This document shows, one piece after another, positions 15,401-35,229 of a stretch of 63,879 nucleotides of DNA. Origin of the DNA: a virus. The notes beneath the pieces are model-generated. The model saw only the letters and a program-made list of their open reading frames with translations. It was not told the DNA's origin and made no database searches. Location of the stretch: the IMG/VR virus record IMGVR_UViG_3300037088_000377, positions 1 to 63,879 of that record; one strand, written 5' to 3'. The translations under genes were made by a program, and so were the position numbers. Every line of letters starts with the position of its first letter. The stretch's first letter is position 1.

Positions 15401-17415
15401 AGAATGACATTGCTGACGACCGGAACATCATGGTAATCCGCAGAGCCAAGCATGCCGAAGGCGCTCCGTATCAATGCCTGAACTGCTTGAAGCAGCATAA
15501 CAATCCTGTTAGGTGTCCCAATTGTGGTAGCAGTGAGAAGAAGCGAATGGGGGTTGAGTATCCGAAGACCGCCGACACAGTGGACAACCCGGCGAACGAG
15601 AAGGGTGGAGTAGGCTACATTCACCCCAAGACCGACGCCGAGAAGGTGAACACCCGTGGGGAAGAGCCTGAGATGGCTCCCGACAAGAACCCCGGTGGGA
15701 GCAAGACCGGGACGGTATGGTTGAACGACAAGAACTTGAGACCTGCTATGTCCATGAACGACATCTTCGCTGAGACAAACCGTCTGTCCGCAAAAGAGCA
15801 GGGAGGAGTGGACTTGTCACACCACCGCAACCACGCCAGCCTCAAGACAGCAGACGCCCAGATGCACTGCCCACAGTGTCAGGGAACCGCCTGTAAGGCG
15901 AACCCCTCGGACCCGCAGTATGTGTGCCAGTGCGGGTGGAAGTCCGGCCAGCCGCTCCATACGATGAGTGAGGGAGAGAGGGAAAACGAACTCAGGACAC
16001 AGGAAAGGCTGCGGGGTTTCCGTCCGCATCGTGGCACCAAGACCGCCGCCGAGGTTGTGGCCGACCTCCTCGCCGACCCCACCGGGGAAGATAAGGGCAT
16101 GGTGGCATCCTTACAGAGCAGGAAGGCGGGCAACAAGCGTGAGGAAGACCTCCGCAAGAAGCGCTCCAGCGTGGCCGAGGAGTTCGGCGACATTTTTGCT
16201 GATGTTTTGCCCCGATATGGAAAGACCGCAGACCAGTCTGTCGAGCCGGACGTGGCACAGGCAAGGGGCGCAATCAGCGGTCCTGGCAAGAACGACCTTG
16301 CCAATACGCCGGAAGCAACCAACACCACTGATGCCCGTGACCTGGAGAAGCAGAAGCCCTCGCCGAACGCCGGGGGGGTGCCGAGGCTCTCATCTAAGAA
16401 AAGGGGTGACCATGATGTCCAGCCCGACATCGCCGCCGCACGGGAGAGGCTTGACCACGGTGCCAAGGCACAGCTTGCCGACAACCCGGAGGCTACACAG
16501 ACCGAGGATATTGGCAAGTTCGCAGGCAAGATGGCTGACCAGTCCGTCGAGCCAGATGTAGCCCAAGCCAAGGCGGCCATCGAAGGTCAGTCCAAGGCAC
16601 AGCTTGCCGACAACCCGGAGGCTACACAGACCACGGACATCCGTGAGCTTGAGAAGCAAGCGGCATATCCTGAAGCACAGCCTACTTCTGAGCAGGTGGA
16701 CGTGGAGGTCAAGGACGAGGGTTCACTAATCCTCCTGATTCCCAAAAACTCGGAGGCAAAGCAGTGGATGAACGATAATCTCGGGCTGGAAGAGTGGCAA
16801 TGGTACGGCGGCGGGGCAGCAATTGAGTACCGCTATGCTGATGACATCATTGAGGGGATGCAGAATGACGGACTGACTGTGACCCCGACCAAGCGCATCA
16901 TCCCCGAGGAGCATGACCTTACCCCAGAGGACGAGCAGCGACTCATCAGTAAAGGTATCGTAGCACCTCCCGGCAAGCGTGCCTGTACTCCATTGGGCGA
17001 CGAGCAGGATGAAGCAATCGACATCGGGGCGCTCATCGGTGACCTTGCCGACCTCGGTGCCAACCTGCCCAATATCGCAGGAGGGACTATGGATGCCCCA
17101 CAGGTCGGGGAGGGTGGAATAAATAACTTGTCAGCCAAGAAGGAATCCTCTCGGAAGCAGGCGGCTTCTCCCGAGGCACTGATGCTTGCCCAAGAGCTTA
17201 TTGACAACGAGGACCCGCTTGTCTTCGATATTTGTTCCAACCATGGACAGATATTCGGGAATGTGCGGCACATGCGGTGGCTGCTTGAGGCTGTGGCGGA
17301 GGAGGCTGAAGCTGAGCATATGGTAGGAGACGAGGAGTCTATCTCTCCTGAACGGGATAGATTAGCCCTTGACGTGGATCCTGATACTTACTTGCCACCG
17401 TTTGAGGAGTTCTAA
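12493..17415 (+). CDS. Giant mosaic protein with repeats and zinc ribbons
   Basis: 1640 aa. The N-terminal ~230 residues appear to be one folded domain. The rest is a string of small modules: two related segments with GELAEWC (residues ~620 and ~845), zinc ribbons (CAVCK...CLPC, CTCGFC, CSICHGSG, CLNCL...CPNC, CPQC...CQC), and three copies of a repeat with SVEPDVAQA..QLADNPEATQT (~1245, ~1305, ~1350). Many module borders carry K-T-A-D or a close variant, about ten in total. It could be an internal virion protein, a processed polyprotein or a scaffold. The next gene overlaps its stop by 1 nt. Confidence 0.7.
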   Translation: MPVSGNSIAAKSFQSFAVNEDLLRKVTEATIKGEKKARSSGEVVSYEAFVTGFRQNISIGRIFIVPASICDKPKEFPIALLYGTVVKLLNLGEETATLIAINTGSEFDEEEDVKEHLKSLKEKAFTVDGKEVSLVVFAPAWSGIREYVTFQFVDDTYKLTNLLRHLVFSCYFNPAVSSGFDALLSKVDTWKIDVTDITPKLTYPALTESPLKKYPELMKTASKRDRIFLTAKTADAIAQNELEPEEMDVFQALGEAMGGALDHGTTTSGEVADKDYKTPAANAEVPRADDGTGPKAAKKVGYDKEDQYTPNVMPGTGMTDDEMLAQQHADIMSKATYTLSEDDLEWTPEYRNRAHGRIGSAKTAFIAEAPTNDSYVVKQNGQIKTGPCPMMECLDWIMEEQENGIGMSRGGYEIEEAGQESAAPVPITASMRKRAGIDPFLASYIESALWSSDDESTPQGGEPLDKNHSLLDIAPETLEVMKQDCERFRTENDQLLQQAIEQDNASWGIIARDFWLTRNRHGAGFWDGDYPATGDALTEAAHAFGEAALYIGDDGRIYQYEDAYSGPKVTGEDIGNTPGGFNNPDEEGLPGEIGGHIGSKKKADTEVVGTPYVVRINGHKTLKGELAEWCIKDESGKLHSAHATQKWANKIVSNYLLSKQADTADNPANQTRDGEGAMDPKTNKEKSVTANVVFPLKSPDKCAVCKADLPAGTKVINKSQWAVVCLPCVNRLRDQNKAPKLSAVAKVKKAMQLYVGIDPYTNERSISRLDRDSEGNRNFQPVSLEQLDEILPQATDFYVGYRSVDADTFRQQAQEIMLANTNKNKPVTAAIAKVAYVSHCKGHKNSKGELAEWCVKSHKDDHIISSHGSEAAAKKHLQDMHAHSGSTEKTAYKTHDADCTCGFCEKKGDIAEKDKEKNDLTKYGSAYGYSFDDDLTPEQRSCTQGCFIRGERECPASCTCSICHGSGRKQNDIADDRNIMVIRRAKHAEGAPYQCLNCLKQHNNPVRCPNCGSSEKKRMGVEYPKTADTVDNPANEKGGVGYIHPKTDAEKVNTRGEEPEMAPDKNPGGSKTGTVWLNDKNLRPAMSMNDIFAETNRLSAKEQGGVDLSHHRNHASLKTADAQMHCPQCQGTACKANPSDPQYVCQCGWKSGQPLHTMSEGERENELRTQERLRGFRPHRGTKTAAEVVADLLADPTGEDKGMVASLQSRKAGNKREEDLRKKRSSVAEEFGDIFADVLPRYGKTADQSVEPDVAQARGAISGPGKNDLANTPEATNTTDARDLEKQKPSPNAGGVPRLSSKKRGDHDVQPDIAAARERLDHGAKAQLADNPEATQTEDIGKFAGKMADQSVEPDVAQAKAAIEGQSKAQLADNPEATQTTDIRELEKQAAYPEAQPTSEQVDVEVKDEGSLILLIPKNSEAKQWMNDNLGLEEWQWYGGGAAIEYRYADDIIEGMQNDGLTVTPTKRIIPEEHDLTPEDEQRLISKGIVAPPGKRACTPLGDEQDEAIDIGALIGDLADLGANLPNIAGGTMDAPQVGEGGINNLSAKKESSRKQAASPEALMLAQELIDNEDPLVFDICSNHGQIFGNVRHMRWLLEAVAEEAEAEHMVGDEESISPERDRLALDVDPDTYLPPFEEF
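16463..16632 (+). repeat. Direct repeat inside the giant gene
   Basis: A 41-nt stretch at 16463..16503 recurs without change at 16592..16632, a period of 129 bp (43 codons). It encodes the shared KAQLADNPEATQT part of two adjacent protein repeats. Exact DNA identity within an otherwise diverging repeat points to recent duplication or gene conversion. Confidence 0.85.
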
Positions 17416-19607
17416 TGGGCTACGATAACTATCGGGATTGGCAGACCTTCGAAGTGCATATCCTTATGGGGAACGAGCGGAAATCCTATGAGCTGAAGAG
17501 GAAAATTGTCCAGCAAGCCTTGGCGATGGGCAAGTCGGACGATGTCACATATCAGATAGTGGCCAAGGAATTTGCCAAGCAGTTTCGCAAGCTGAGGGAC
17601 CAAGTAAAAGTAGAGTTTGACGAGAGTCTTAACGACACGATAACAGAGCGGGGAGAGTTTGAGGCTCGGCAGATAGAGGGAAAGAAGCCGACGCCCAGCG
17701 AATTTGGTCATAATGGCGATGTCCTCAACGAAGTCATGGATATGATTCGTAGCGATATGGGAAGCGGACTCTTGCCAAGGTGGGAAGAGCCTGACTGGCT
17801 GGAGCTTGCCGAGTGTGAGGTAGAGCAGGAGAAGCTGGAGAGGTCATCAGCGAAGGCAGTAATGCAAATGAAACAACAGCCCGGAGAGGATGTTGAGCTT
17901 CCTCCCGATATGACAGAGGGGCTAAAAGCAATGGGAATCAGGGGTTCCAAGGAGACAGTCATGACGAAGGTAGCGTTTGTCCTCAAGGGTCATAAATTCG
18001 TGTCATCTCTCCCGTCCGCAAAGGCGGCGGGAAGGTTCATCAAGGCGGCCAACGACAAATGGGGCAAGGAATTTAAGGTCGGGGGCATGGGGACGGACCA
18101 GGAATCCGAGCTGGTGACCTCCGGTGTCAACGTCCTTGATGCGGCCGTCGTGCCCGAGCACTTGGAAGACACCAAGTTTGCCGCAGGCGGGGGTGATACC
18201 TTCCAAGGGGCTTATATCGTGATGCAGCAGGACGCCTACAAACACCTGCAGGTCAGGGCGACCCCACAGGGAAGGCGTGAGGCCGAGACCCTAGCGGGCG
18301 AACCTACTGACAACGCCTTGGCGAGCCTGCTTGAGGATGCCACAGGCAATGGTTGGGAATGGAAGACACCCGAGGAGCTTGGGGCATTGACCTCCGCCCC
18401 CATCCTTGCCAGCCCGGCAGGCAATGTTTACTGGCACGAGCGATACCAAGTGGACGACCCTATCGAGATGCTGGCCAAGGGGGGAATGGTGCAGTTCAAC
18501 TATGCAGGGAACTTGAATGAGACCGAGGAAGTCCCGGTAGAGGGCAAGGCACCCGAGGCAGCAATCGGGGGAGGAATCATGGCATCGGCAAAGGCAAAAA
18601 TTGGAAAGAAGATGAAGAGCTTTGACTTCTTCTTCCCCCGACAGGTCTTACGAGAGTTTTATCCCAAGATACGGTTGGGTGCCTTCAACTTTTCCCCGGC
18701 GCACGTGCAGGGTCAGGTCGCCAGGGAATTCACGGACGAGATACCGGGAAACACCGTTGACAAGGTCAACCCCAATATCGGCGGATTCGGAAACGAGGAC
18801 AACCACCCGATGCTCAACCCCGAAATATCCGGGGATATGCACACCATAGCCGCCCTTGAAGACCTGTTCGACAACCTGACGAAGCTCAGCTACGTCAGTA
18901 CCTCTCCCGCAGGCGCAGCCGGGCTGGGCAGGGACTTCAAGCCTCAGACCCTCGAAGGACAGGCTTTCCGTTCCCCGGACGACGCACGTGGGGGCATGTT
19001 CGGGGAGGAGTTCTACCAGAACTATGGCATGGGACCGGACGGGGACGCCCTCAGTCACCTTGCTGCGATGATGGACGAGGATAAGCACGAGACTTGCGGG
19101 AAGTGCGGCCAGTGCATACACTGCGGTACCTGCCACTGCCCGGAGCCACAGCGTACCGGAAAGTTCGGGGAAAACAAGGAGGCACACCGGAAGCTGGCCG
19201 GGATGGGTAATGCCAAGGAGCAGTTCGGCACGTTCCTGAAGATGGTGATGATGGAGATTGCAACTACTCTCCTATCAGCATGGAAGGTAACAAATCGTCC
19301 CCCTTTGAACAAGATTCCGGGGACTGGGGAAGTTCAGCTTGACCAGATAGAGCAACAGCAGTACCAAGGTATTTCCAGCTTAAGCCTTACTGTCACGAAG
19401 AGCCAAGTGAAGTATCTTGTAGAAAAGCTAAACGATGGGGACCTTCAGGAAGTTCTCAACGATAGTTGGGCTCAGGCGGCTGCTTGGTGTGGTAGCCCTA
19501 ACGGGGGTGGGGTGCGGGAGGTATTCGTAAGGGCAGAAACACTTGACTCCGAGTCTCTCAGGCTCGTCTACAAGTTCGTGACTGGTACTCGTGACTCGGC
19601 GGCATAA
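17415..19607 (+). CDS. Large hypothetical protein, possibly virion-associated
   Basis: 730 aa starting MGYDNYRDWQTFEVHILMG, with its start touching the upstream stop. The N-terminal 150 residues are helical and acidic. A segment near 180-215 (KVAFVLKGHKFVSSLPSAKAAGRFI) echoes the GHK modules of the neighbouring giant protein. Residues ~400-480 resemble a beta-rich region, and a cysteine-rich knot, CGKCGQCIHCGTCHC, lies near residue 565, probably zinc-binding. The context suggests it works with the 1640-aa protein. Confidence 0.65.
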   Translation: MGYDNYRDWQTFEVHILMGNERKSYELKRKIVQQALAMGKSDDVTYQIVAKEFAKQFRKLRDQVKVEFDESLNDTITERGEFEARQIEGKKPTPSEFGHNGDVLNEVMDMIRSDMGSGLLPRWEEPDWLELAECEVEQEKLERSSAKAVMQMKQQPGEDVELPPDMTEGLKAMGIRGSKETVMTKVAFVLKGHKFVSSLPSAKAAGRFIKAANDKWGKEFKVGGMGTDQESELVTSGVNVLDAAVVPEHLEDTKFAAGGGDTFQGAYIVMQQDAYKHLQVRATPQGRREAETLAGEPTDNALASLLEDATGNGWEWKTPEELGALTSAPILASPAGNVYWHERYQVDDPIEMLAKGGMVQFNYAGNLNETEEVPVEGKAPEAAIGGGIMASAKAKIGKKMKSFDFFFPRQVLREFYPKIRLGAFNFSPAHVQGQVAREFTDEIPGNTVDKVNPNIGGFGNEDNHPMLNPEISGDMHTIAALEDLFDNLTKLSYVSTSPAGAAGLGRDFKPQTLEGQAFRSPDDARGGMFGEEFYQNYGMGPDGDALSHLAAMMDEDKHETCGKCGQCIHCGTCHCPEPQRTGKFGENKEAHRKLAGMGNAKEQFGTFLKMVMMEIATTLLSAWKVTNRPPLNKIPGTGEVQLDQIEQQQYQGISSLSLTVTKSQVKYLVEKLNDGDLQEVLNDSWAQAAAWCGSPNGGGVREVFVRAETLDSESLRLVYKFVTGTRDSAA

Positions 19608-21424: not shown

Positions 21425-22324
21425 ATGACAAAAAAGATACCGTGGAAGAGGATAGAAGCAACGCCTGGTCTTACTTTTCCAGAAGCGACCCTTGGGACAG
21501 AGTACTTCAGCGGAGGGAATCCGCAGGACCAGACTGACCGGCTTATCAAGGAGCTTATTCCTAACTCTAAGGATGCCAGTACCAATGGCTTTATAGAGAT
21601 TGCCATCTCCATAGGAGAAGTTTCTGGAGACGCCATACGCAGGCATTTCGGGGACCTTTCCGATGACCTAAAGGCTGAGGGAGCCACTGGCAGAGCAAGA
21701 TACCAGCACATTGATATGGATGCCGACCGTATCCGTGCGATGGTGTTTGAGGATTTTGGCACCATGGGTTTGGCAGGAGACATCCACAATACCGTGATAG
21801 CAACGAAGAAAGACCTCGAAGGCAACAACTGGGGGGGGTTTTGGTTCTTGGATGGAGCTTCCTCGGGGGCAGGGAAAGGTGGCAGGGGGGGAAAGCACGG
21901 GATAGGGAAGAACTCGCTTCTCCTGAATAGTGGCATCAGTGCCTTTGCGGTGAACACTGTATGGAACCCATCGAAGGGATTGGGTAATTTTGACCTGTTG
22001 ATGGGGCGTGCTGCTCTGTTTACTCGAAAAGTCAAGGAAAAGGTGTATCTTCCCCCTGCATGGATGTGCGAGAATCCTACAGCAGTGAACTTCGCACCGT
22101 TGCCTATCGAAGATGTGGTGACCATCGACCAGTTCCGCAAGGACTTCGGGTTGGTCAGAACGAACGGAGAGGCAGGAACCAGTATCGTTGTCCCGTTCCT
22201 CAACGAACAGATAACCATAGACACCGTGGAAGCGGCAGTGGCTACGCAGTTCACAAGGCTCCTGCTTGAAGGTAAGGTAAGGTGCGAGATAGGACCGATA
22301 GGAGGATTGAGCCATGGCAAGTAG
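21425..22324 (+). CDS. GHKL-type ATPase, N-terminal half of a split protein
   Basis: 299 aa from the ATG at 21425. The GHKL (Bergerat-fold) boxes are in order: N box ELIPNSKDAS (43-52), G1 box FEDFGTMGL (108-116) with the ATP-contacting Asp, and G2 box GGRGGKHGIGK (152-162). The later LPIEDVVTIDQFRKDFGLVR and SIVVPF segments match a family I recall of ~650-700-aa ATPases in bacterial defence-type loci. Here the chain stops at residue 299 and continues in the next gene, which overlaps by 11 nt. Its likely role is a nucleotide-driven switch working with the two downstream partner proteins. Confidence 0.75.
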   Translation: MTKKIPWKRIEATPGLTFPEATLGTEYFSGGNPQDQTDRLIKELIPNSKDASTNGFIEIAISIGEVSGDAIRRHFGDLSDDLKAEGATGRARYQHIDMDADRIRAMVFEDFGTMGLAGDIHNTVIATKKDLEGNNWGGFWFLDGASSGAGKGGRGGKHGIGKNSLLLNSGISAFAVNTVWNPSKGLGNFDLLMGRAALFTRKVKEKVYLPPAWMCENPTAVNFAPLPIEDVVTIDQFRKDFGLVRTNGEAGTSIVVPFLNEQITIDTVEAAVATQFTRLLLEGKVRCEIGPIGGLSHGK

Positions 22325-23381
22325 CATACTGGATAGCAACACCATCCTGCCGCTGCTCGAAGGAAAGCTCATAGAGCATAAGGACGGAGTTGGGGAGACT
22401 GGATTCATCGTTCTAGCAAGGCTTATGGAGTTTTACCTGAAAGGCAGCGGAGCGAACCTTGTCCTCCAGCAAACTATGCCCTCGACGGCGTGGCGGGGAG
22501 ATTTCGTCCTAGTCCAAGGAGCCTATGAGGACTCTTGGGGCAGGCTATGCAAGGGACAGCCCATAGAGGTAAGGGTACAGACCACGATTGCAAGGACGGA
22601 CGGGACCAAGCAGGGGACTTACATCACAGTCCTCTTGATGCATGACCCTGACCGGCTTTGGCGACCTCATGTGAGTCGGAATGGGCTTCCAATCACTGAA
22701 GCGTGCAGTGGGCAAAACCGCAGTGAGTATATCGTCGAGATACTCGTTGACGACGACCCCATAGCCGAGTTTGTGGGAGATGCTGAAGACCCCTCCCATC
22801 GCAAGCTGAACACCAGGGAACTCAAGACGAAGTATGAGAATGCTGACAGGATGCTGGAGTTCGTAACTGGTGCGGCTGTGGGGATTCTCAAACGGCTGCG
22901 GCCACCAGACACGAAAATCAACCGTGATGCATTCGCAGACTTTCTCCCCGCTCCTGGGGCTGTCCCCGCTGCACCTGACCCTCCTCTTGCTGGTAAGGGC
23001 AAGGGCGGGATGGAAATTCCTCACGGAAATAGTGATGACCCAGTATGCCTCAGTTACAAGGACGGGGTTCTGGAGATAGGGCAGAATGGAGACATCGTTC
23101 CTCGTCGTTTTATCATCAAGGCGAGCTTCCATGGGCTTCCTCACGATAGGAACGACTTCGATTTCAAGAACATGGAGGATTCCGAAGACATCGAGTATGA
23201 AGGAATCAAGCGCATCGAAGCACTTTCATCCAACAGGCTCTTGGTGATTCCTAAGAAAAAAAATGCCAAGAAGTTTCGTTTGACCATCAAGGGGTTGGAT
23301 GACGAGACGGCGCTTCGCCAACTCGATGTTCGTGTCAGGGCCACGTTAAATGACGAAGAGAAAGAGGGGGATGAGGAATAA
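22314..23381 (+). CDS. C-terminal half of the split GHKL ATPase
   Basis: 355 aa. It starts inside the last codons of the ATPase gene with GGAGG 8 nt upstream. The sequence SWGRLCKGQPIEVRVQTTIA..VLLMHDPDRLWRPHVSRNGLPIT and VGDAEDPSHRKLNTRELKTKYENADRMLEFV corresponds to the region after the ATPase core in single-chain relatives as I recall them. The last 120 residues form a separate beta-rich domain (KDGVLEIGQNGDIVPRRFIIKASF). It has no nucleotide-binding motif of its own, so it probably assembles with the N-terminal half. Confidence 0.65.
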   Translation: MASSILDSNTILPLLEGKLIEHKDGVGETGFIVLARLMEFYLKGSGANLVLQQTMPSTAWRGDFVLVQGAYEDSWGRLCKGQPIEVRVQTTIARTDGTKQGTYITVLLMHDPDRLWRPHVSRNGLPITEACSGQNRSEYIVEILVDDDPIAEFVGDAEDPSHRKLNTRELKTKYENADRMLEFVTGAAVGILKRLRPPDTKINRDAFADFLPAPGAVPAAPDPPLAGKGKGGMEIPHGNSDDPVCLSYKDGVLEIGQNGDIVPRRFIIKASFHGLPHDRNDFDFKNMEDSEDIEYEGIKRIEALSSNRLLVIPKKKNAKKFRLTIKGLDDETALRQLDVRVRATLNDEEKEGDEE

Positions 23382-23430
23382 TCTCCTCCAATCCCGTATC
23401 CAGAAATGTATACTACATACAGAGGAGGAA
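23379..23430 (+). promoter_or_regulatory. Recurrent phage promoter, copy 8 (internal)
   Basis: ATAATCTCCTCCAATCCCG at 23379..23397, then ATGTATACTACATACAGAGGAGG with -10 TATACT at 23409..23414. It sits between the split ATPase and its partner genes and would allow the partners to be made independently. Confidence 0.6.
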
Positions 23431-23435
23431 AGGCT

Positions 23436-24281
23436 ATGGAAGCAGGCACAGCAACAGCGGAGGAAAAACAGGGGAAGAAGGTAAAGCCCTGCGTTAAGAT
23501 GAGCCTCAGCGGTCTGAAGGTAGAAAACCTCCCCCAGTCCTCGGTCATCGTCCGAGTGACAGATGACGGAAAGAGTGCGGAATTCGACCTGTCCGCCATT
23601 AGGAAGAAACTATCTTCCTATGCTGATGAAATCGAAGTGCATCTTATTGTGACGCATTCCGACGCCGACAGGTTCCAAGCACGGCATAGGATGGGAACTT
23701 GGAAGGACATCGAAAACAACATCAGGATACCCATCCCCGATAGGTTGCCACCGAAAGGGCTGCGCTTTGAGCTACGGATGGTGGACGAGGCTAACTATGG
23801 GAGAATCCGAGGAACGTGCAAGGACCTAAGGCTTCCGCAGCTTACGGAGGGGAGCCTTCTATGTCTAGCCGTGGATATGGACTTGGGGGGTATTCCGTAC
23901 ACATTGCGTTATCCCGTTGGGGACTATCCGAGATTGGTTCTGTCCTCTGACCTTCTAAAGGCGGCGGGAGACCAGACCGTAGACGAGTACATGAGCCTAC
24001 TGGACAACCAAGTGAAGATTTTCCTGCCCGCAGTCCACAGGGTCCTTTCTCACATCGCTAGGAAGATGGGGATGGAAGGAAGGGAAGAATTAACTTCAGA
24101 GGAAGAGAACTGGGTAGTAGCCTTCGAGAAGTACGGCGCTCCACCAGAGGAATCCGACGAGCCTGCGACCATGGCTGTCATGGAGAAAGAAGAAGATTGG
24201 GTTTACTGTGTAGTATCACAGTGGGCCAAGGGAACAAGGTTCATGGAGGGATTCGTGAGGAGAGGAGAAAAGCAATGCTGA
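23436..24281 (+). CDS. ATPase-associated protein, partner 1
   Basis: 281 aa from the ATG at 23436 (AGAGGAGG upstream). The ordered pattern MSLSGLKVENLPQSSVIVRV, EFDLSAIRKKL, DADRFQARHRMG, NNIRIPIPDRLPPKGLRFELRMVDE and SLLCLAVDMDLGGIPYTLRYP fits the protein that, from memory, follows this GHKL ATPase in bacterial loci. Its function is unknown. It is mostly beta-sheet with no catalytic motif that I can see. It overlaps the next gene by 7 nt. Confidence 0.6.
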   Translation: MEAGTATAEEKQGKKVKPCVKMSLSGLKVENLPQSSVIVRVTDDGKSAEFDLSAIRKKLSSYADEIEVHLIVTHSDADRFQARHRMGTWKDIENNIRIPIPDRLPPKGLRFELRMVDEANYGRIRGTCKDLRLPQLTEGSLLCLAVDMDLGGIPYTLRYPVGDYPRLVLSSDLLKAAGDQTVDEYMSLLDNQVKIFLPAVHRVLSHIARKMGMEGREELTSEEENWVVAFEKYGAPPEESDEPATMAVMEKEEDWVYCVVSQWAKGTRFMEGFVRRGEKQC

Positions 24282-25060
24282 TGAGGATACGGAGATTCAA
24301 CCAGAGGGGGCTGGACAAGATACGGGAGGTCTACGCTAGTATCCGACAGACCGGCGTGATGCCAGACCAAGGGCAGAGAACCACAATCTTGATTGATGGC
24401 AACCTTACGGAGGAGTTACGCCCTGCGGCAAGCATCGACCCCGACAGGCGGTTTGCCTTAAGTTTTGAGTTGGGGCACCATTTGTCAGATGCCGTAGGGG
24501 CTGCCGGGCTGATGTTCAGAAAGGAGGAGTGGGAATGGCTGAGGTTTTTGTACTTGGACCAGATTTGCCAGAGGAATAAGAAGGGGAGTTCCTGGAATCC
24601 TCCCCAAGACGAGCACATCGCTGGACGGAGGGGTCGCCACAAGATTAGGACAGCCTACGAACTGTATGAGGGTGCAAAAGACATGGATGAAGCGGATAAG
24701 AGTATCTTGTCTAAGATTCCGCTGCAACAGGGAACCAGCGACGTATGGGATGTTATCTTTGCAGTGAAGTTCCCAATGTTACAGTATCACGAGGTGCTGT
24801 GGGCAATGACTATGGTGTACGTGAATGAGGATGGTGCCCTTCGTAAAGGGTTGAGCAGCAGGTCTCCGTGGGCTTCTAGGTACTTCCCTCGCTCTCTTGC
24901 GCATAACGCTGCCTACGGATTCGACTTTTCCTTCCTTGACCGGTATGCAGTTCTGGCGATGCTGCCCAAGAAGAACTTCGGAACGCTTTTGTCGAAACTC
25001 CCGAGGAAGGACAGGGACAGGGTCGAGGAAGCCAGAAACAGGTTAAAAAGGGTTCGGTAA
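24275..25060 (+). CDS. ATPase-associated protein, partner 2 (DUF6339-like)
   Basis: 261 aa from the ATG at 24275 after a GAGGAGAAAAG Shine-Dalgarno. It begins MLMRIRRFNQRGLDKIREV and has WEWLRFLYLDQICQ, a central HKIRTAYELYEGAKDMDEAD and near the end LDRYAVLAMLPKKNFGTLL. This layout matches my memory of the DUF6339-type third gene in the same bacterial loci; the assignment is unverified. It is helical, with no nuclease signature visible. It completes the ATPase trio. Confidence 0.6.
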   Translation: MLMRIRRFNQRGLDKIREVYASIRQTGVMPDQGQRTTILIDGNLTEELRPAASIDPDRRFALSFELGHHLSDAVGAAGLMFRKEEWEWLRFLYLDQICQRNKKGSSWNPPQDEHIAGRRGRHKIRTAYELYEGAKDMDEADKSILSKIPLQQGTSDVWDVIFAVKFPMLQYHEVLWAMTMVYVNEDGALRKGLSSRSPWASRYFPRSLAHNAAYGFDFSFLDRYAVLAMLPKKNFGTLLSKLPRKDRDRVEEARNRLKRVR

Positions 25061-25086
25061 CGATATCCAAAACTGGAGGAAATGAC

Positions 25087-25449
25087 ATGGCAAAAAAGCA
25101 TATGACTATCAGAATGCGTATAAAGGGCACGAGGGCGGTACTCCGGTCAAAAAAGACTCCCGCCCATACCAAACCGGGGCTACAGAAGTACTTAGATGGG
25201 CTGCTCACCCCCAAGCATTCCATACCCCTGACCACACGGATAAAGGGCACAGTGGCTTCATTGGGCTCCCCCCATACCCCGGAGATTTTCAAGAAAGGGG
25301 CAGAGGAGAGAGTGAGCCTCCTTCTTGAACAGCGCCTTGAGGAGCTTTTCGGATGCGACCAAGCTCGTCTTCAACGCTTCTTCTCGAAACTTATTGGCTA
25401 TGACCAGTCCGTTCCCAAAAACTTTTTCTCTAAACTTGTTGGACGCTGA
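25087..25449 (+). CDS. Small basic protein with internal repeat
   Basis: 120 aa with a strong GGAGG 7 nt before the ATG. Two related N-terminal segments (RIKGTRAVLRSKKTPAHTKPG and RIKGTVASLGSPHTPEIFKKG) and two C-terminal ones (FFSKLIGYDQ, FFSKLVGR) indicate internal duplication. It is strongly basic, so it could contact nucleic acid. The last 192 nt are read on the opposite strand as the methyltransferase C-terminus. Confidence 0.55.
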   Translation: MAKKHMTIRMRIKGTRAVLRSKKTPAHTKPGLQKYLDGLLTPKHSIPLTTRIKGTVASLGSPHTPEIFKKGAEERVSLLLEQRLEELFGCDQARLQRFFSKLIGYDQSVPKNFFSKLVGR

Positions 25450-26415
25450 CTGGTCAACCATTTCTATTCTTTCACCTAGCCACCTCATTACTGGCACAGC
25501 CATGCTGTTACCAAGTGCCATGTAGCGTAGCATGTCGGGGCACTCCTCCTCGGGTCTACCTTCCCAAGATATCCGGGTGAAGTTGTCTTCGAATCCCATA
25601 AGCCTTTCCCACTCGACAGGAGTGAGGTGGCGGGTTCTACCGTCAGCCTCGGTGATGTAAGTCTCAGACGTAGGATTGTAGCAGCCTATACCTCGTGCTT
25701 TAAGGCAGAAGGAGAGACTTCCTCCGTTGGTAGTTAATTCTGAGTATTGACTGCTCTTTGGAGAGATTCTCGGAGTCTTGGGTACAGGTTGTAAGCTGTC
25801 TTCCCCATTGCCTTGTACTTCTTCTCCCGATTCAGGAGTCCTTGGGCCGCTTTCTTCCCCAAATAAAACTTCCCAGGCAGGTTGGCTATCTCCAAGATAC
25901 CCCACAACGAACACTCTTTTGCGTCTTTGGGCGACCTCGAAGAATCTAGCATCCAGCACCCTGTAAGCGAACCCGTACCCGCATTTGCCCAATTCCCAGA
26001 GGAAGGCTCCAAAATCGTGATGCTTTGTCCCGTTTTCAGCTTCAAGCGAATTGGAGGACAGAACTCCGGGGACGTTCTCCCAGAGGACCCAGCGTGCCCT
26101 GGACCTCTTGGCAAGTTTGCAGAAAGCCAGCATAAGGCTTCCTCGTTCGTCGGAGAGACCTTGTTTTTTACCGTTAATGCTGTAGGGCTGGCAGGGGGTT
26201 CCTCCGACGAGCAGGTCGATTTTAGAGTCTCTGAATTTCTTTTTTCTTTCAAGGGTCGTCATGTCTCCTAAGTCTTCAATGGTGGGAAACCTATTGTGCA
26301 GTACTGCTTTGGGGAACTTCTTTATCTCCGAGAACCAAGCAGCTTTCCATCCAAGTGGCTCCCAAGCGACGGTGGTCGCCTCGATTCCGCTGCAAACGCT
26401 GCCATAGGTTATCAT
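25258..26415 (-). CDS. DNA cytosine-C5 methyltransferase 1
   Basis: 385 aa with the full set of C5-methylase motifs: I (SVCSGIEA, 6-13), IV with catalytic Cys (GGTPCQPYS, 71-79), VI (WENVPG, 112-117), VIII (QRRKRVFVVG, 163-172), IX (RHLTPVEWERLMGF) and X (ALGNSMAVP). It transfers a methyl group from S-adenosylmethionine to cytosine in a specific DNA site. About 65 residues follow motif X and include repeated NKFRE/EKLLK segments lying antisense to the plus-strand gene. No cognate restriction enzyme is seen. It lies downstream of a second methylase gene in one operon. Confidence 0.92.
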   Translation of the reverse strand: MITYGSVCSGIEATTVAWEPLGWKAAWFSEIKKFPKAVLHNRFPTIEDLGDMTTLERKKKFRDSKIDLLVGGTPCQPYSINGKKQGLSDERGSLMLAFCKLAKRSRARWVLWENVPGVLSSNSLEAENGTKHHDFGAFLWELGKCGYGFAYRVLDARFFEVAQRRKRVFVVGYLGDSQPAWEVLFGEESGPRTPESGEEVQGNGEDSLQPVPKTPRISPKSSQYSELTTNGGSLSFCLKARGIGCYNPTSETYITEADGRTRHLTPVEWERLMGFEDNFTRISWEGRPEEECPDMLRYMALGNSMAVPVMRWLGERIEMVDQSASNKFREKVFGNGLVIANKFREEALKTSLVASEKLLKALFKKEAHSLLCPFLENLRGMGGAQ

Positions 26416-26441
26416 CAGGGTTTAATACCTAGTTTTCAATC

Positions 26442-26750
26442 TTACTTTAGAAGCGTCTTGGCCTTGGCATCGGCAATCAACTCGTCGAAGCTTTCTAAGA
26501 CTTCCTCACACTCTGCTTTGATGGCGGTAATCTTCTGGTCACGTGCCACTTTAACTGATGCTTTTTGCATCTCTAAAATTTGAATCGCCCTTGTCATACC
26601 CTTGCTTTTTAATGGGGTTAAACTTGTCGGTGTCGCCTTCTTAGTTTCATATCTTTTGCGCCTTTCTTCCGACCAAGTCCGTTTGGTGGGAGATGGCGTC
26701 ACGGTGGTTTCTACAGTTCCTACTGCTGTGGTCACATCATTCGTATTCAT
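26442..26750 (-). CDS. Small coiled-coil protein between methylases
   Basis: 102 aa from the ATG at 26750 (AAGGAG 8 nt upstream). The N-terminal half is Thr/Ser-rich and probably disordered. The C-terminal half is a helix or coiled coil (MTRAIQILEMQKASVKVARDQKITAIKAECEEVLESFDELIADAK). It lies 13 nt after the upstream methylase and 27 nt before the next. Function is unknown. Confidence 0.55.
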   Translation of the reverse strand: MNTNDVTTAVGTVETTVTPSPTKRTWSEERRKRYETKKATPTSLTPLKSKGMTRAIQILEMQKASVKVARDQKITAIKAECEEVLESFDELIADAKAKTLLK

Positions 26751-26763
26751 AGTTGTTTTCTCC

Positions 26764-27612
26764 TTAGGTACTAATACTGCTTCCATGACCTTTCCTCTCT
26801 TTCTCGACTTGGACGATGAACATCCCGATGAGCGCCGGGATGACCCAGACGACAGAATTCCCGCAGCACTTAACTCTGTCCACCCATTTGGTATACCCAT
26901 GAACTGTTCGCAGGCTTCGGCGGTAGGCATTAAATTCGGATTCTTCTGGAGTATTGCTCTGGCCAGCATTTCCTGTGCCCAACTGGCGCTTCCAGTAATC
27001 CCAGTATTGGCTTTTTTCCTTAATCTCCCCCCAGAAGTTATCGGGAAGGTCTTTCTGAAAGACCAGTTTGACTTCTTCAAAAGAATTGCGGTGGCTGAAG
27101 GGGTAGTTGTTACAAGCGATAATCCAGACACGGGGTCGAGAGTGGGGGATTCCGAAGACCTCACTCTCCAATATGGTCGTCCCCCAAGCGTAGCCTTCTT
27201 TTTCCAAGTCGGAGAGGACCCTGTCCCCATCTGACGTATGCAAAAGTCTAGCCACGTTTTCAACGATGACCCAAGGTGGGCGGATTTCTCGGATAAGCCT
27301 GAGAAAGTGGTACCAGAGCCCGGATGTAGAGGTTGGCTGTTCGGGGGTGCCGATACCGAGCTTTTTTCTTCCTGCACCAGAAATACTGGTGCAGGGGAAT
27401 CCCCCTGACAGGATGTCAACATGTCCAAGCTCTTCTCCCTTGCACTGCTTAATATCCTCATACTGTCGTACATCGGGCCAATGCTTCTTCAGGATAGCTT
27501 TAGGGTAGGGGGCAATCTCTACCTGGAAGACCGTCTTGATTTCAGGGGACACCTCAAGACCCCAGTCTATCATCCCCACGCCTGAAAACAGGCTGCCGTG
27601 CTTAAGTGTCAT
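26764..27612 (-). CDS. DNA cytosine-C5 methyltransferase 2
   Basis: 282 aa, compact, with motif I (GSLFSGVGMIDWGL), catalytic motif IV (GGFPCTSIS, Cys74), motif VI (VENVARLL, 117-124), motif VIII (HSRPRVWIIA) and motif X (CCGNSVVWVIPALIG). The short spacer between VIII and X implies a small target-recognition region. It is clearly different in sequence from methyltransferase 1, so the two probably modify different sites. It is the first gene of the leftward methylase operon. Confidence 0.92.
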   Translation of the reverse strand: MTLKHGSLFSGVGMIDWGLEVSPEIKTVFQVEIAPYPKAILKKHWPDVRQYEDIKQCKGEELGHVDILSGGFPCTSISGAGRKKLGIGTPEQPTSTSGLWYHFLRLIREIRPPWVIVENVARLLHTSDGDRVLSDLEKEGYAWGTTILESEVFGIPHSRPRVWIIACNNYPFSHRNSFEEVKLVFQKDLPDNFWGEIKEKSQYWDYWKRQLGTGNAGQSNTPEESEFNAYRRSLRTVHGYTKWVDRVKCCGNSVVWVIPALIGMFIVQVEKERKGHGSSIST

Positions 27613-27650: not shown

Positions 27651-29423
27651 CTAGCGGTTGGCGCGTGAGACAAACAAAGATTCAAATGACGGCTCGTCTA
27701 TCTTGACGATGAAGCTCCCGAGGATATCTGGGTCGGTTCTGTAAAGGTGCCCCTCTTTCATCATCTTTCGCTTGGAGTACCCCGACCCAATGGGGGATGA
27801 CTTATCCACCAAGCTGTGAATCCACGCCGCCATAGCCGCTTCTCTGCTGTCCTTGGACCCCATCAACGCCCGTGCCGCCCGACTCATTCCCCGGCGCACA
27901 TCCGGCCTGTGCAGCCCGAGGACATCCGCCACCTGCTGGAACGACCTGTACTTTGAATACTCGATAATAGCCCTGGACAAACCTCCTTTGAGAGAGTCCT
28001 CCAGCCCCGCCTTGGTCAGTACTTGCGACAAGACCTCAACAGTAGGCTCTCCGAAGAGCAGGAAAGCGCCAATGACCCGGATGGCCATACGGATGCGGAA
28101 TGAGCATACCGTCTGGGTAGATTTGAAGATGGTGGCCAGCGTGGTTTGGGTGTTGTGGGTGGGAATCATACTCTTACCACATAAATAAAGGTGGGAGGGG
28201 GAATCCACGGTGAGACAACGCATCAGCTTGGGTGCAACCTTAGTTACCTTATTGATATGATGGCTAAGCGAATCTCCCTTAAGATTTAACCGTTTTTGTC
28301 TGGCTAACTTTCTCGGTAAGCGAAAACACGGGACGGTAGTGGTAAACGCTGTTCCCCATCCATCGGAGTAACGCTTTTCCCCTTTGTAAATGCAATAGCT
28401 CCGCTTGGGTCTGAATTGATGTTTGATGCCTAATGACCATAGTAGTTCGTCAATTCCTCCTATGATGGCGGGCGAACAGTTTGTAAATGAGCATGTACCC
28501 AACTTAGTACATGAGCCATCTGTGTCCATTAGACCTTGGAGTAGAGCTAACCTTTGGCGTGCGGAGGCACGTAAGTATATTGACGGGATATGCTTGTTCT
28601 TTATAACTCCGAGCTTCTTTAGGGAAGACCAGAGACCCAAGATATGCCAACGCTGTGGGTCTTTGTCACTCTGATACCACTTATACCCAGCAGCCGAAAA
28701 ATGAGACAGTATTTCTTTGACATCTTCAGCGCTTCCTGTCAGGATGCCGCAATCGCTGTTTCCATCCCCAAGCCAAGCTCCAAGACAATATGGGTCCACA
28801 AGCAGGGGTTGGTCCGGCAATTCCAACTCATGCGTAAGGGCAATATGGTGATTCGCCAGGTATTTACCCTGTCTTGAACTTGCACAGTAGCGTTGTGTTT
28901 CGTATATCTCCTGTGTGGTACGGACAGTTTTGTCTAAACGGTACACATTTCTATGCTTGGCATTTTGACGGTCATTGTAGGTTGTCGTAAGCCAAAGATG
29001 GTCGTTCCCTGCATAGAGTTTTTCTCCAGTGTCCAATTCAATTTCATAAGTTATATCGGGGTAGCAAGTCGGATGAGCTTTCAATACACGAGTCGGCAGT
29101 CCGTTATCGTCAAGCACCAAGTCCCCGTCTACAATGTCCCCGTTACGTTTCCATCCATCAGGGGTGGGTATCGGGGTATCAACATCCAATAACTTTCCCA
29201 AGAGATAATAGGATAAAAGTATATCCTGGTCCTCCTGGCTGAGGTACTTGAGCATCTTCAGGAACCCTGTAAAGTTCTCCTGGATGTAGGTGAAGATGTC
29301 ATCCTCTTGGAGGTCCCGCTGAGTCTCCAAACTTATCGTTGTAGCCCCCTCCAGCGCCTCCTCTTCGCTTAACAGGAGAGACCTAGCACTGGTAATTGAG
29401 GTCATATACGGGGTTTGCTCCAA
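27651..29423 (-). CDS. Sigma-region-4-like HTH protein interrupted by an intein
   Basis: 590 aa precursor. The exteins (residues 1-77 and 425-590) join to YLSQEDQDILLSYYLLGK + TQTTLATIFKSTQTV, which reads like the helix-turn-helix of sigma-70 region 4. A second HTH-like segment follows (FQQVADVLGLHRPDVRRGM). The protein is therefore a likely DNA-binding transcription factor, active only after splicing. A TTG start at 29423 with GGAGG 5 nt upstream is most like other genes here; an ATG at 29405 is the alternative. The spliced product would be ~243 aa. Confidence 0.7.
   Translation of the reverse strand: MEQTPYMTSITSARSLLLSEEEALEGATTISLETQRDLQEDDIFTYIQENFTGFLKMLKYLSQEDQDILLSYYLLGKLLDVDTPIPTPDGWKRNGDIVDGDLVLDDNGLPTRVLKAHPTCYPDITYEIELDTGEKLYAGNDHLWLTTTYNDRQNAKHRNVYRLDKTVRTTQEIYETQRYCASSRQGKYLANHHIALTHELELPDQPLLVDPYCLGAWLGDGNSDCGILTGSAEDVKEILSHFSAAGYKWYQSDKDPQRWHILGLWSSLKKLGVIKNKHIPSIYLRASARQRLALLQGLMDTDGSCTKLGTCSFTNCSPAIIGGIDELLWSLGIKHQFRPKRSYCIYKGEKRYSDGWGTAFTTTVPCFRLPRKLARQKRLNLKGDSLSHHINKVTKVAPKLMRCLTVDSPSHLYLCGKSMIPTHNTQTTLATIFKSTQTVCSFRIRMAIRVIGAFLLFGEPTVEVLSQVLTKAGLEDSLKGGLSRAIIEYSKYRSFQQVADVLGLHRPDVRRGMSRAARALMGSKDSREAAMAAWIHSLVDKSSPIGSGYSKRKMMKEGHLYRTDPDILGSFIVKIDEPSFESLFVSRANR
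28152..29192 (-). mobile_element. Class 3 intein with LAGLIDADG endonuclease (HTH protein)
   Basis: 347 residues from LLDVDTPIPTPDGW to SMIPTHN. The first residue is Leu, not Cys or Ser. A Trp in block B (NDHLW), a Cys in block F (LMRCLTV) and a Thr in block G (PTHN) form the W-C-T set that defines class 3 inteins, which splice through the block F cysteine. The +1 extein residue is Thr. LAGLIDADG-type motifs CLGAWLGDG and ALLQGLMDTDG indicate a homing endonuclease. Confidence 0.85.
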
Positions 29424-32142: not shown

Positions 32143-32826
32143 ATGATGACATCAACCTTAATGCCCGCCTCCCCCTTAGTTTCATGCTTAACTCCAACTT
32201 ACAATCGGCGTGATTTCTGGCCGAAATGTATCCAATGTTTCCTTTCGCAGGACTACACCAATTTAGAATGGGTAATTGTTGATAATAGTGAAACCCCCAT
32301 CAAGGACCTCCTCCCCGCCGACCCCCGCATCCGGTATGTCCGGCACCCCGGAGAACGCCTGTCCCACGGGAACCTCATGAACCTGTGCATGGGATGCTCC
32401 ACGGGCGCTCTGGCGTGCGTTCTTGACGATGACGACTGGTATGCCCCGGACAGGGTCAGGAAGCAGGTTCAACCACTCATAGATAATCCCGCAAAGGACA
32501 TCGTAGGGACGAGTCGGCTATTTTATTACGTCTTAGGAACCCAGAAGGCATTTCGGTATGTCAACCAGACTCACCAGAAGTGGCTGGCCGCACCCGCTTG
32601 GAGGCGGTCGGCTTGGGAGAACAACAAGTTTGACAACCTCACACGTGGGGCGGACACAAACTTTATGAACCGGATTCCTAAGAATCGCTGGGTGGACTTG
32701 GAGGATGAGCGGCTGATAGCAAGCACGATACATCCCGGAAATGCATCGCCAAAAAGGCTGCTTCCGCCTTCTTTTGTAGGAGTACCTTGGGCAAGCGTGG
32801 AAGAAATCACGAAAGGAACACTGTAG
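32143..32826 (+). CDS. Family 2 glycosyltransferase
   Basis: 227 aa. The N-terminal LVSCLTPTYNRRDFWPKC is the GT-A nucleotide-sugar binding start of GT2 enzymes, and LDDDDWYAPDR near residue 95 is the metal-binding D-x-D region. The C-terminal part is shorter than in typical polysaccharide synthases, so it is a soluble transferase. It heads the glycan cluster, 15 nt before the epimerase gene. Donor and acceptor are unknown. Confidence 0.85.
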   Translation: MMTSTLMPASPLVSCLTPTYNRRDFWPKCIQCFLSQDYTNLEWVIVDNSETPIKDLLPADPRIRYVRHPGERLSHGNLMNLCMGCSTGALACVLDDDDWYAPDRVRKQVQPLIDNPAKDIVGTSRLFYYVLGTQKAFRYVNQTHQKWLAAPAWRRSAWENNKFDNLTRGADTNFMNRIPKNRWVDLEDERLIASTIHPGNASPKRLLPPSFVGVPWASVEEITKGTL

Positions 32827-32840
32827 AGTAGGAGAACAAC

Positions 32841-33815
32841 ATGAAAAAGGCACTCGTCTGTGGAGCAGGGGGCTTCATTGGTGGTCACCTGATAAAGAGG
32901 TTGAAACGAGAGGGTTATTGGGTTCGTGGCGTGGATATCAAGGAGCATGAATTTTGTCCGACCGCTGCAGACACATTCTTTCGTCTTGACCTTCGAGATA
33001 AATATAGTTGTCACGCTGCACTCAGCTTAGACACGGAGAAGTTTGATGAGGTCTATCAGTTGGCCGCCGATATGGGTGGGATGGGCTTCATACATTCTGC
33101 TGAGTGTGAAATCATGCATAACAATGCACTGATAAACATTCATATGACGCAGGCAGCGGCGACAATGGGCATCTCTCGGTACTTCTTCTCTTCGTCTGTC
33201 TGCGTCTACCGTGATATGATATTCGGAGAGCCGGAAATGATGGAAACAGAGGCCACTCCCGCCAATCCGGACAATGAGTATGGGTGGGAAAAACTCTATT
33301 CTGAGCGTGTGGCAATGGCATACGAGCGCCGCTATGGGGTGCAGGTGCGTATCGCCCGCTTCCAGAACTGCTATGGTGCGGAGGGTACTTGGCGTGGGGG
33401 GCGGGAAAAGGCTCCTGCGGCCATCTGTCGCAAGGTGGCTGAGGCTGCGGATGGGGATACGATTGAGGTTTGGGGTGACGGAACCGCTGTGCGCTCATAC
33501 ACACACGTCAACGATATGGTTGACGGCATTTTTAGGCTTATGCATTCCGACTTGCACGGAGCTGCCAATATCGGGTGCCCGCAGTATGCGACAGTGAATG
33601 AACTGGTGGCTACGGTTGCCGATGTAGCCGGTAAGAAAATCTGTATTACACACATCAACGGTCCGGTCGGTGTTCAATCCCGTAACTTCAGCAATGCCCG
33701 CATCTACTCAACGGGTTGGAAACCCAAGATATTCCTTAAAGAGGGCATCCAACTAACCTACCCTTGGATTGAGACCCAAGTCAAAGCGGCTGAGACCGTA
33801 AAAGGAACCCTATGA
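32841..33815 (+). CDS. GDP-mannose 3,5-epimerase-like enzyme
   Basis: 324 aa SDR-type sugar epimerase. It has an NAD-binding GAGGFIGG (8-15), an AADMGGMGFI segment, the catalytic Cys in SSSVCVYR (Cys121), the YGWEK tyrosine and lysine (Tyr147, Lys151) and ARFQNCYGAEGTWRGGREKAPAA with Lys190. This combination is specific for GDP-mannose 3,5-epimerase, which turns GDP-D-mannose into GDP-L-galactose (and GDP-L-gulose). It is unusual in phages. It would supply the donor sugar for the cluster. The stop overlaps the next start (ATGA). Confidence 0.85.
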   Translation: MKKALVCGAGGFIGGHLIKRLKREGYWVRGVDIKEHEFCPTAADTFFRLDLRDKYSCHAALSLDTEKFDEVYQLAADMGGMGFIHSAECEIMHNNALINIHMTQAAATMGISRYFFSSSVCVYRDMIFGEPEMMETEATPANPDNEYGWEKLYSERVAMAYERRYGVQVRIARFQNCYGAEGTWRGGREKAPAAICRKVAEAADGDTIEVWGDGTAVRSYTHVNDMVDGIFRLMHSDLHGAANIGCPQYATVNELVATVADVAGKKICITHINGPVGVQSRNFSNARIYSTGWKPKIFLKEGIQLTYPWIETQVKAAETVKGTL

Positions 33816-34450
33816 GTAATCCCCGCCTGCTCATCGCCATCACCAGTTGTCATAAACACAGGGAGTGGCAATTTGCACAAAGGCAAACATGGGTACGGGA
33901 CATACCCCACGGGGTATCCTATCGGTTCTTCCTCGGCAACCCCATCGTTCAGGATGCTTTGGAAGACGAGGTCTTCTTGGACGCCCCGGACGACTACTCG
34001 TTAATACCCGTTAAGATGAAGGGTATCTTCCAGTGGGCATTGGATCAAGGGTTTAACTTTGCCTTCAAGGTGGACATTGACACCTTGGTAAATGTCCAAA
34101 ACCTTTTGGATAGTGGGTTCGACAAGCATGATTATGTCGGCGGTCTTTATAGCCAAGGGGTCGCTACCCCGTTCGCCAGCGGAGGGTCGGGATTCATGCT
34201 GAGTGAGAAGGCGATGCGTCTCGTAGTAGAGGAGCCTGTAAGAGATGACGGGTATGACGACGTGCTTGTGGCTTTGGCGATGAAGAGAGGCAATATTCCT
34301 TTGCATGCCGACAGCAGGTATAGGTTTTCCCCCGGATACACGATGGACGGGAAAGGTATCTCCTATCATCTTAGCTCCATCTCTAAATGGAAGGAGAGTT
34401 ACTTCCCAACAGTGATGTTTGAGAAATACTTGGAGATGAAAAGGCTATGA
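33812..34450 (+). CDS. GT31-like galactosyltransferase
   Basis: 212 aa. RQTWVRDIPHGVSYRFFLG, DDYSLIPVKMKGIFQWAL, the metal-binding FKVDIDTLV, the FASGGSGFMLSEKAM acceptor-side loop and DDGYDDVLVALAMKRG occur in the order of beta-1,3-galactosyl/GlcNAc transferases (GT31, Fringe-like). It is shorter than animal enzymes and lacks a membrane anchor, so it is cytosolic. It is coupled by ATGA overlaps to both neighbours. Confidence 0.8.
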   Translation: MSNPRLLIAITSCHKHREWQFAQRQTWVRDIPHGVSYRFFLGNPIVQDALEDEVFLDAPDDYSLIPVKMKGIFQWALDQGFNFAFKVDIDTLVNVQNLLDSGFDKHDYVGGLYSQGVATPFASGGSGFMLSEKAMRLVVEEPVRDDGYDDVLVALAMKRGNIPLHADSRYRFSPGYTMDGKGISYHLSSISKWKESYFPTVMFEKYLEMKRL

Positions 34451-35229
34451 GCTTATCGAGCGGCTTTACATTAGAACAGGAAAGAAGACAAGAGGAGCTT
34501 CAATCAATGTTCCAGAACGCCCGCCGTGGGATGAACTTCGGGATGGGTGGCGGGTTTGAGTCTAGCGGAGAATATCAAGCGATTCAAAAAATAAGAGGTG
34601 AATTGCTGAAAAAGTATTGTGAGCCCTATATTTTGTTTGATGTGGGAGCTAACGAAGGGGAATACACCCGGTTTTTATCGAACATCTTTGCTGGCGAGGC
34701 GGTAATTCACGCTTTTGAGCCATCGTTAGGTACCTTTGAGGTCCTGCGGCAGCGGCTTGGCGAGGCGGCTGAGCTTCACCGGCTAGCCTTCGGGGAACAA
34801 AGTGGTTTCGCTTTGCTATACTCAAATAGTAACTCCGGGCTTTCGTCTTTCTATAACCGCAATCTTAAACATTTTGGGATAGTGTTGGACAAGACGGAGA
34901 GTATTTCTGTACTGACACTCGACGAATTTTGTCAAACGATGGGCATCCAGCATATCCACTTTCTGAAGATGGATGTTGAAGGACATGAGCTTCAGGTTCT
35001 CAAGGGAGCTAAGAAGATTCTGGAGCAACGGGGGGTTGACTTCATCCAGTTTGAGTTTGGTGGATGCAATATCGACTCAAGGACCTTCTTCCAAGACTTT
35101 TTCTATCTGCTCTCTCCTCAATATCGCCTCTTCCGAGTCCTGGCAGACGGCTTGTGGCCGGTAGAGTCTTACAGGGAGTCGGAGGAATTTTTTGACGGTC
35201 CGACTAATTACATGTGTGAACTTATATGA
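34447..35229 (+). CDS. FkbM-family methyltransferase
   Basis: 260 aa. It has a SAM-binding FDVGANEGEYTRF, then HAFEPSLGTFEVL, and the family mark FLKMDVEGHELQVLKGA. FkbM enzymes O-methylate sugars and natural products, so here it probably caps or decorates the glycan. Residues 1-55 are a helical extension. It sits inside the cluster, coupled to the GT31 gene. Confidence 0.85.
   Translation: MSLSSGFTLEQERRQEELQSMFQNARRGMNFGMGGGFESSGEYQAIQKIRGELLKKYCEPYILFDVGANEGEYTRFLSNIFAGEAVIHAFEPSLGTFEVLRQRLGEAAELHRLAFGEQSGFALLYSNSNSGLSSFYNRNLKHFGIVLDKTESISVLTLDEFCQTMGIQHIHFLKMDVEGHELQVLKGAKKILEQRGVDFIQFEFGGCNIDSRTFFQDFFYLLSPQYRLFRVLADGLWPVESYRESEEFFDGPTNYMCELI

What the first reader, a model, noticed from the sequence alone, without database searches (positions are those of the whole stretch)
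21425..27612. A phage-borne GHKL ATPase trio facing two cytosine methyltransferases
Four coupled genes encode a GHKL ATPase (two halves) and two partners whose residue patterns match, from memory, an ATPase/DUF/DUF6339-type set found in bacterial defence-type loci (MZA-like: methyltransferase, Z1, ATPase and DUF genes). A convergent operon encodes two complete C5-methylases. No Z1 or nuclease gene is visible. This may be a stripped-down or new variant used by the phage against competitors, or an anti-defence device. The link to MZA is recalled, not verified.
Basis: partly seen in the sequence, partly recalled or inferred. Interest (0 to 1): 0.85.

Follow-up and report, generated by a model that had tools for sequence, protein, structure and literature searches.

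The report
Phage-borne split paraMORC2 defence-type trio
A giant soil phage carries a three-protein DNA-handling machine that bacteria keep beside DNA methylases in defence-type loci; the phage has cut its motor protein in two and placed the set next to methylases it already had, so it may be a weapon against other phages or a tool against host defences.

Summary
Four plus-strand ORFs encode a GHKL ATPase split in two plus two partners, convergent with two intact C5-methylases. No library matched them directly. Through relatives found in about 1,380 bacterial genomes they are homologues of the trio PADLOC lists as candidate defence system PDC-M33 (A = GHKL, B, C = DUF6339): E = 2e-66 (ATPase), 7e-10 (B), 8e-19 (C). 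The ATPase bears the ExxxH signature of Iyer's paraMORC2 family, invariant in all 27 sequences. Sixteen of 28 related loci hold a C5-methylase, eleven of them also a Vsr endonuclease; one also carries MzaC (Z1) and MzaD, so the recalled MZA link is real but one step removed. Related jumbo phages have the same gene order and the methylases without the trio: the methylases are resident, the trio is extra cargo beside them. Full-length relatives have a one-piece ATPase; the phage split lies at the GHKL/S5 border with its own ribosome-binding site. No Vsr, Z1 or other cognate nuclease is visible in this 64-kb fragment. Function is inferred, not shown.

The parts
21425..22324 (+). M33A-N: GHKL ATPase domain (299 aa); N-box nt 21551-21577, G1 21749-21769, G2 21890-21910, G3 22175-22183
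   Evidence: hmmsearch with clade-II M33A profile built without the window: 140 bits, E 3e-43; motif columns invariant
22314..23381 (+). M33A-C: S5/transducer and C-terminal part of the same ATPase as a separate ORF (355 aa); paraMORC2 signature ExxxH at nt 22785-22799
   Evidence: 81 bits, E 3e-25; ExxxH invariant in 27/27 aligned ATPases
22300..22305 (+). AGGAGG ribosome-binding site of the second ATPase ORF, lying in the roughly 9-residue excess at the domain border
   Evidence: sequence; junction alignment
23436..24281 (+). M33B-like partner (281 aa)
   Evidence: hmmsearch 30.8 bits, E 7e-10, best of 1000 shuffles 3.8 bits; hhalign prob 85%, E 6e-6 over 226 columns. Not detectable with more distant B sets
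24275..25060 (+). M33C-like / DUF6339-like partner (261 aa)
   Evidence: 59.8 bits, E 8e-19; hhalign prob 96.7%, E 3.6e-10 over 229 columns. PF19866 itself does not hit it
25087..25449 (+). possible fifth gene of the operon (120 aa, basic), antisense to the 3' end of MT1
   Evidence: SD GGAGG before the ATG in the sequence; no PHROG match
25258..26415 (-). MT1: C5 cytosine methylase (385 aa)
   Evidence: PF00145 1e-46, phrog_116 5e-72; 42% homologue at the syntenic place in phage G008 without the trio
26764..27612 (-). MT2: C5 cytosine methylase (282 aa)
   Evidence: PF00145 4e-35; 42-52% homologues in 7 of 50 related phage records

Best explanation
Identity (shown by sequence): a paraMORC2-type GHKL ATPase, delivered as two polypeptides (GHKL domain; S5/transducer plus C-terminal part), with two partners homologous to PDC-M33B and PDC-M33C/DUF6339. 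It is accessory cargo in a jumbo phage, next to C5-methylases that the phage lineage already had. Mechanism (inferred): the two ATPase pieces assemble and dimerise on ATP binding to form a DNA clamp or looping engine, as in MutL and MORC. B and C are its DNA- or partner-contacting subunits. In bacteria this complex acts with a C5-methylase that marks self DNA and, often, a Vsr-type nicking enzyme that cuts. In the phage it most likely acts on DNA that lacks the phage's own methyl marks, that is host or rival-phage DNA, while the resident methylases spare the phage genome. It would work as a superinfection-exclusion or host-takeover device, with a nuclease encoded elsewhere or borrowed, or by clamping and silencing DNA without cutting.
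For: Homology of all four ORFs to the trio in conserved order. A, B and C all detected at 25 of 28 related loci, from Pseudomonadota, Bacteroidota, Chloroflexota, Actinomycetota, a plasmid and viral records. C5-methylase near 16 of 28 and methylase plus Vsr at 11 of 28, including L185, whose ATPase is the best match to the window's; none in 30 control loci. All ATP-site residues and ExxxH retained. Each gene has a strong SD and phage-like codon use. Iyer et al. 2008 (PMC2292703) proposed that MORC/paraMORC proteins loop DNA for nucleases in restriction-modification operons; MORC2 acts as a DNA clamp and compacts DNA (PMC12216690 abstract).
Against: No nuclease partner is visible in the fragment. 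A Chloroflexota subgroup has the trio with no C5-methylase nearby, so methylation dependence is not universal. The methylases occur in related phages without the trio. PDC-M33 has no published experimental test that I could find; PDCs are described as unvalidated (PMC12988326). The structure models were too poor to use.
Confidence: 0.45

Rival explanations
1. Counter-defence decoy: the phage expresses separate pieces of a host M33-type complex, which join the host's complex and block it (dominant negative), while the two methylases independently protect phage DNA from the same or other restriction systems.
For: The ATPase is split in the phage and in no full-length relative. No nuclease is present. 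The methylases are inherited independently, as expected for protection. Jumbo phages may carry several methylases, possibly against several restriction systems (PMC7824862).
Against: The catalytic residues are all kept, which a decoy would not need. All three partners are carried, not a fragment. A host with a close M33 homologue is not known; the best ATPase match is about 27% identical.
Confidence: 0.22
2. Management of the phage's own DNA: a MORC-like clamp that compacts, loops or silences phage or host DNA to time transcription or replication, without any defence role.
For: MORC2 compacts DNA in an ATP-dependent way without a nuclease (PMC12216690 abstract). Methylase-free M33 trios exist.
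Against: Not found in the related jumbo-phage records searched (for the ATPase, for C), so not a core function. Many bacterial relatives sit in restriction-type loci.
Confidence: 0.13
3. Passenger cargo in decay: picked up from a bacterium, broken by frameshift and without function.
For: The ATPase is in two frames, the nuclease is missing, and no other virus record found carries a close copy.
Against: The split sits at the domain border, with about 9 extra residues and a consensus AGGAGG shortly before the ATG. ORF2's frame has a stop two codons upstream, so an indel error would have to fall in an 11-nt stretch. Motifs are intact, every gene has an SD and codon use is phage-like.
Confidence: 0.13
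4. A T4 rIIA-type phage GHKL protein rather than a defence-locus trio.
For: rIIA also has an N-terminal GHKL domain and a variable C-terminal domain, and is seen as a poorly understood counter-defence protein (PMC7824862).
Against: T4 rIIA and E. coli MutL score 2.4 and 2.3 bits on the profile that gives the window ATPase 220 bits. No PHROG match.
Confidence: 0.02

Closest known systems
PDC-M33 (PADLOC candidate defence system M33A-B-C; PDLC04582, PDLC04583, PDLC04584-04587)
   Same: Same three families in the same order; same GHKL motifs and ExxxH; C is the DUF6339 family
   Different: The window lies in a sister clade (100/100 split) that PADLOC's HMMs barely reach (E 0.31 for A, none for B or C). 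The ATPase is in two ORFs; phage-borne; no Vsr seen
paraMORC2 (Iyer, Abhiman and Aravind 2008)
   Same: N-terminal GHKL plus S5-like module with ExxxH; genomic company of C5-methylases and Vsr
   Different: Module split between two genes; no helicase or nuclease seen; in a jumbo phage
MZA system (PADLOC MzaA-E)
   Same: Trio found beside MzaC (Z1) and MzaD in relative L139
   Different: No MzaC/Z1 or MzaD in the window's locus; the relatives' ATPases match PDC-M33A and no Mza model
Vsr-containing C5 restriction-modification loci
   Same: Bacterial trios closest to the window's (L122, L123, L185-L187) are convergent with or close to a C5-methylase and Vsr
   Different: The phage methylases are phage-type and were in the phage lineage independently of the trio; no Vsr seen
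T4 rIIA/rIIB
   Same: Phage-encoded GHKL protein thought to act in conflicts
   Different: No detectable sequence similarity

Membership tests
PDC-M33 | GHKL ATPase homologous to M33A | tested here: met
   via intermediates: 220 bits, E 2e-66 for the joined ATPase; bacterial intermediates hit PDLC04582 at 1e-32
PDC-M33 | M33B and M33C homologues directly downstream in the same order | tested here: met
   B 7e-10, C 8e-19 with subfamily profiles; order A-B-C
PDC-M33 | direct match to PADLOC's own M33 HMMs | tested here: not met
   A: E 0.31; B, C: none. Hence called M33-like, sister clade, not PDC-M33 in PADLOC's sense
[quoted passage not shown]
   E158-H162 of ORF2; the only ExxxH in the joined protein, aligned with an invariant ExxxH in 27/27
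MORC (sensu stricto) | GhXhhpXXRhl motif in the S5 domain | tested here: not met
   no match in the window or any relative
MZA | Z1 (MzaC) and MzaD genes | tested here: not met
   not found among the locus's genes that were scanned; present in relative L139
MZA | ATPase matching a Mza model | tested here: not met
   the window's N half and the relatives' ATPases hit only PDC-M33A among PADLOC models
Type II restriction-modification with Vsr | nuclease in the locus | tested here: not met
   Vsr HMM finds only a 66-aa antisense ORF (E 0.01, judged spurious) in the window; the phage genome is only partly held
Type II restriction-modification with Vsr | active C5-methylase | tested here: inconclusive
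   both methylases have motifs I, IV, VI and X; activity not testable here
Anti-phage defence system | protects a cell from phage | not testable with these tools
   needs a plating assay

The most novel reading that the evidence does not exclude
A lytic jumbo phage has turned a bacterial paraMORC2 defence trio into a nuclease-free, two-part ATPase clamp that reads the phage's own pre-existing C5-methylation as the self mark, and uses it against unmethylated rival or host DNA.
Probability: 0.2. Interest if true: 0.82.

Novelty: new variant of a known kind. Interest (0 to 1): 0.6.

Why it matters
M33/paraMORC2 trios are widespread, uncharacterised neighbours of restriction systems and prokaryotic cousins of the MORC gene-silencing ATPases. 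A phage version with the ATPase naturally cut at the GHKL/S5 border gives a ready-made two-part system for testing what the ATPase, B and C each do. Sister phages that have the methylases but not the trio give a natural test of whether the trio needs cytosine methylation. It would also add paraMORC-type complexes to the tools that phages carry against each other or against host defences.

Tried and rejected
Direct searches with the four proteins in Pfam, PADLOC, PHROGs and NCBIfam gave no significant match. tblastn with both ATPase halves in plasmids, and with the N half and C in phages, found nothing; IMG/VR scans with the ATPase found nothing. A degenerate N-box DNA pattern found only chance matches in genomes. 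Two weak hits in related phages do not lie in a plausible gene and were rejected. DUF6339 (PF19866) does not hit the window directly. B homology was not significant with distant sets and became so only with the closer subfamily. AlphaFold models had mean pLDDT 31 and 39 and were not used. Considered and rejected: rIIA-type GHKL; the split as a sequencing error; the methylases as part of the same transferred cassette (synteny).

Full report
What the window is. The record is a 63,879-base IMG/VR virus contig. Its tail protein at 59522-62320 has relatives in over 100 other virus stretches, on contigs as long as 463 kb, and in the 308-kb Tunturiibacter phage Tunturi_5. It is therefore most likely a fragment of a jumbo phage; the host is not known.

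Observation. The first two plus-strand ORFs overlap by 11 nt in different frames. The upstream one carries the GHKL motifs, and the downstream one starts at an ATG shortly after AGGAGG. The two minus-strand genes are intact C5-methylases.

Finding the family. The four proteins match nothing significantly in Pfam, PADLOC, PHROGs or NCBIfam. The joined ATPase searched against 398 Pseudomonadota genomes found two clear relatives (E 2e-20 and 4e-15), each a single ORF of 610 or 651 aa. Both loci hold two further genes in the order and sizes of the window's, then a convergent C5-methylase and a Vsr gene. Their ATPases match PADLOC PDC-M33A. A search with that model and fetching of neighbourhoods showed that the partners are PDC-M33B and PDC-M33C, the latter being DUF6339. 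Searches in Actinomycetota, Bacteroidota and Chloroflexota added more. With profiles built only from relatives, the window genes score: ATPase joined 220 bits (2e-66), N half 140, C half 81, B 31, C 60 bits; T4 rIIA and MutL score about 2. B was not detectable until the closer subfamily was included, so it is the weakest of the four assignments, supported also by position.

Genomic company. Of 28 loci examined, 25 show A, B and C together, 16 hold a C5-methylase, and 11 of these a Vsr as well; some stretches are short contigs, so these are lower bounds. A Chloroflexota subgroup has the trio, often with a duplicated C, and no C5-methylase nearby. One relative has C fused to a PAPS-reductase-like domain and another lies beside a GmrSD restriction protein.

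Placement. A 27-sequence tree splits the ATPases into two groups at 100/100. The sequences closest to PADLOC's model (L133, L134, L135) are in one; the window is in the other with a long branch, together with L122, L123, L185-L187 and the Chloroflexota set. All 27 have an invariant ExxxH, the signature that Iyer et al. give for paraMORC2. None has the MORC motif. I therefore file the window's set as a paraMORC2, PDC-M33-like trio of a sister clade, not as PDC-M33 in PADLOC's sense and not as MZA.

The split. In full-length relatives the chain runs through the border between the GHKL and S5 domains with a loop of varying length. The phage has about nine extra residues there, containing the ribosome-binding site and start codon. 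ORF2's frame has a stop two codons above its ATG, so an indel error would have to fall in an 11-nt stretch that also happens to follow a consensus SD. Gene fission is the better reading. T4 offers a precedent of another kind: an insertion splits its large topoisomerase subunit into gp39 and gp60 (annotation).

The methylases. MT2 homologues are in 7 of 50 related phage records, and the ATPase search was negative in all of them. Gene order around them follows the window's in three of the phages fetched: 41886, 32143, 31442, 30625, 27651, MT2. In G008 (L156) MT1 also lies in place, followed by other genes and then by the homologues of 20630, 20360 and 17415; the trio is missing there. So the methylases are resident and the trio is a lineage-specific addition between MT1 and gene 20630. 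In G009 (L157) the nearby stretch between the 20630 and 20360 homologues carries a CRISPR-like array and a protein with a weak Cas12f-like domain match, so this part of the genome is variable and takes up conflict genes.

Mechanism. Shown: homology, intact ATP-site residues, order, split, company, and absence from the sister-phage records searched. Inferred: ATP-driven clamp or looping by analogy with MutL, paraMORC and MORC (PMC2292703; PMC12216690), methylation as the self mark, and action on foreign DNA. The missing nuclease and the methylase-free relatives are the main weaknesses; a decoy role and a DNA-organising role remain open.

Novelty. The families are known by sequence but uncharacterised. 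What is new is the phage-borne, split form with resident phage methylases. The literature library gave no paper on PDC-M33 or DUF6339; PDCs are described as unvalidated (PMC12988326).

Noticed in passing
window 26442-27473 (-), over MT2 26764-27612: A +1 reading frame overlapping the MT2 methylase is conserved as protein in all six related phage loci (54% id over 189 aa in L156 against 51% for MT2 itself; 35-47% in the others). The frame is open for 221-240 codons in the five tested, with synonymous-codon permutation p 0.001-0.04. Its alternative-frame score is 0.55-0.69 of the main frame, against roughly 0-0.4 for other genes. Suggests a dual-coding (overprinted) gene.
   Followed up: partly
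L157 (G009, IMGVR_UViG_3300025459_000003) 10714-18534: About 24 CRISPR-like repeats, mostly at 66-nt spacing, next to an 859-aa protein with a weak Cas12f1-like TNB domain match and a 1045-aa helicase/methyltransferase-like protein, near the corresponding variable region of a related jumbo phage.
   Followed up: partly
window 27651-29423 (-), 43103-46210 (-), 59522-62320 (-): Three genes contain LAGLIDADG or Hint intein-like regions: a sigma-like protein, the terminase and a tail protein. Related phages L156 and L158 have the sigma-like protein (243 aa) without the insert.
   Followed up: partly
L190, L194 (also L188, L193): Chloroflexota M33 loci carry two tandem C genes, some with extra N- and C-terminal regions, and no C5-methylase nearby.
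   Followed up: no
L198 4718-6400 (-): M33C (DUF6339) fused to a PAPS-reductase-like domain in one ORF.
   Followed up: no
L133 7976-11918 (-): A bacterial M33 locus with two C5-methylases flanking Vsr, a precedent for two methylases beside the trio.
   Followed up: no
window 32143-40702 (+): Cluster of sugar-modifying genes (NAD-dependent epimerase, several glycosyltransferases) of unknown target.
   Followed up: no
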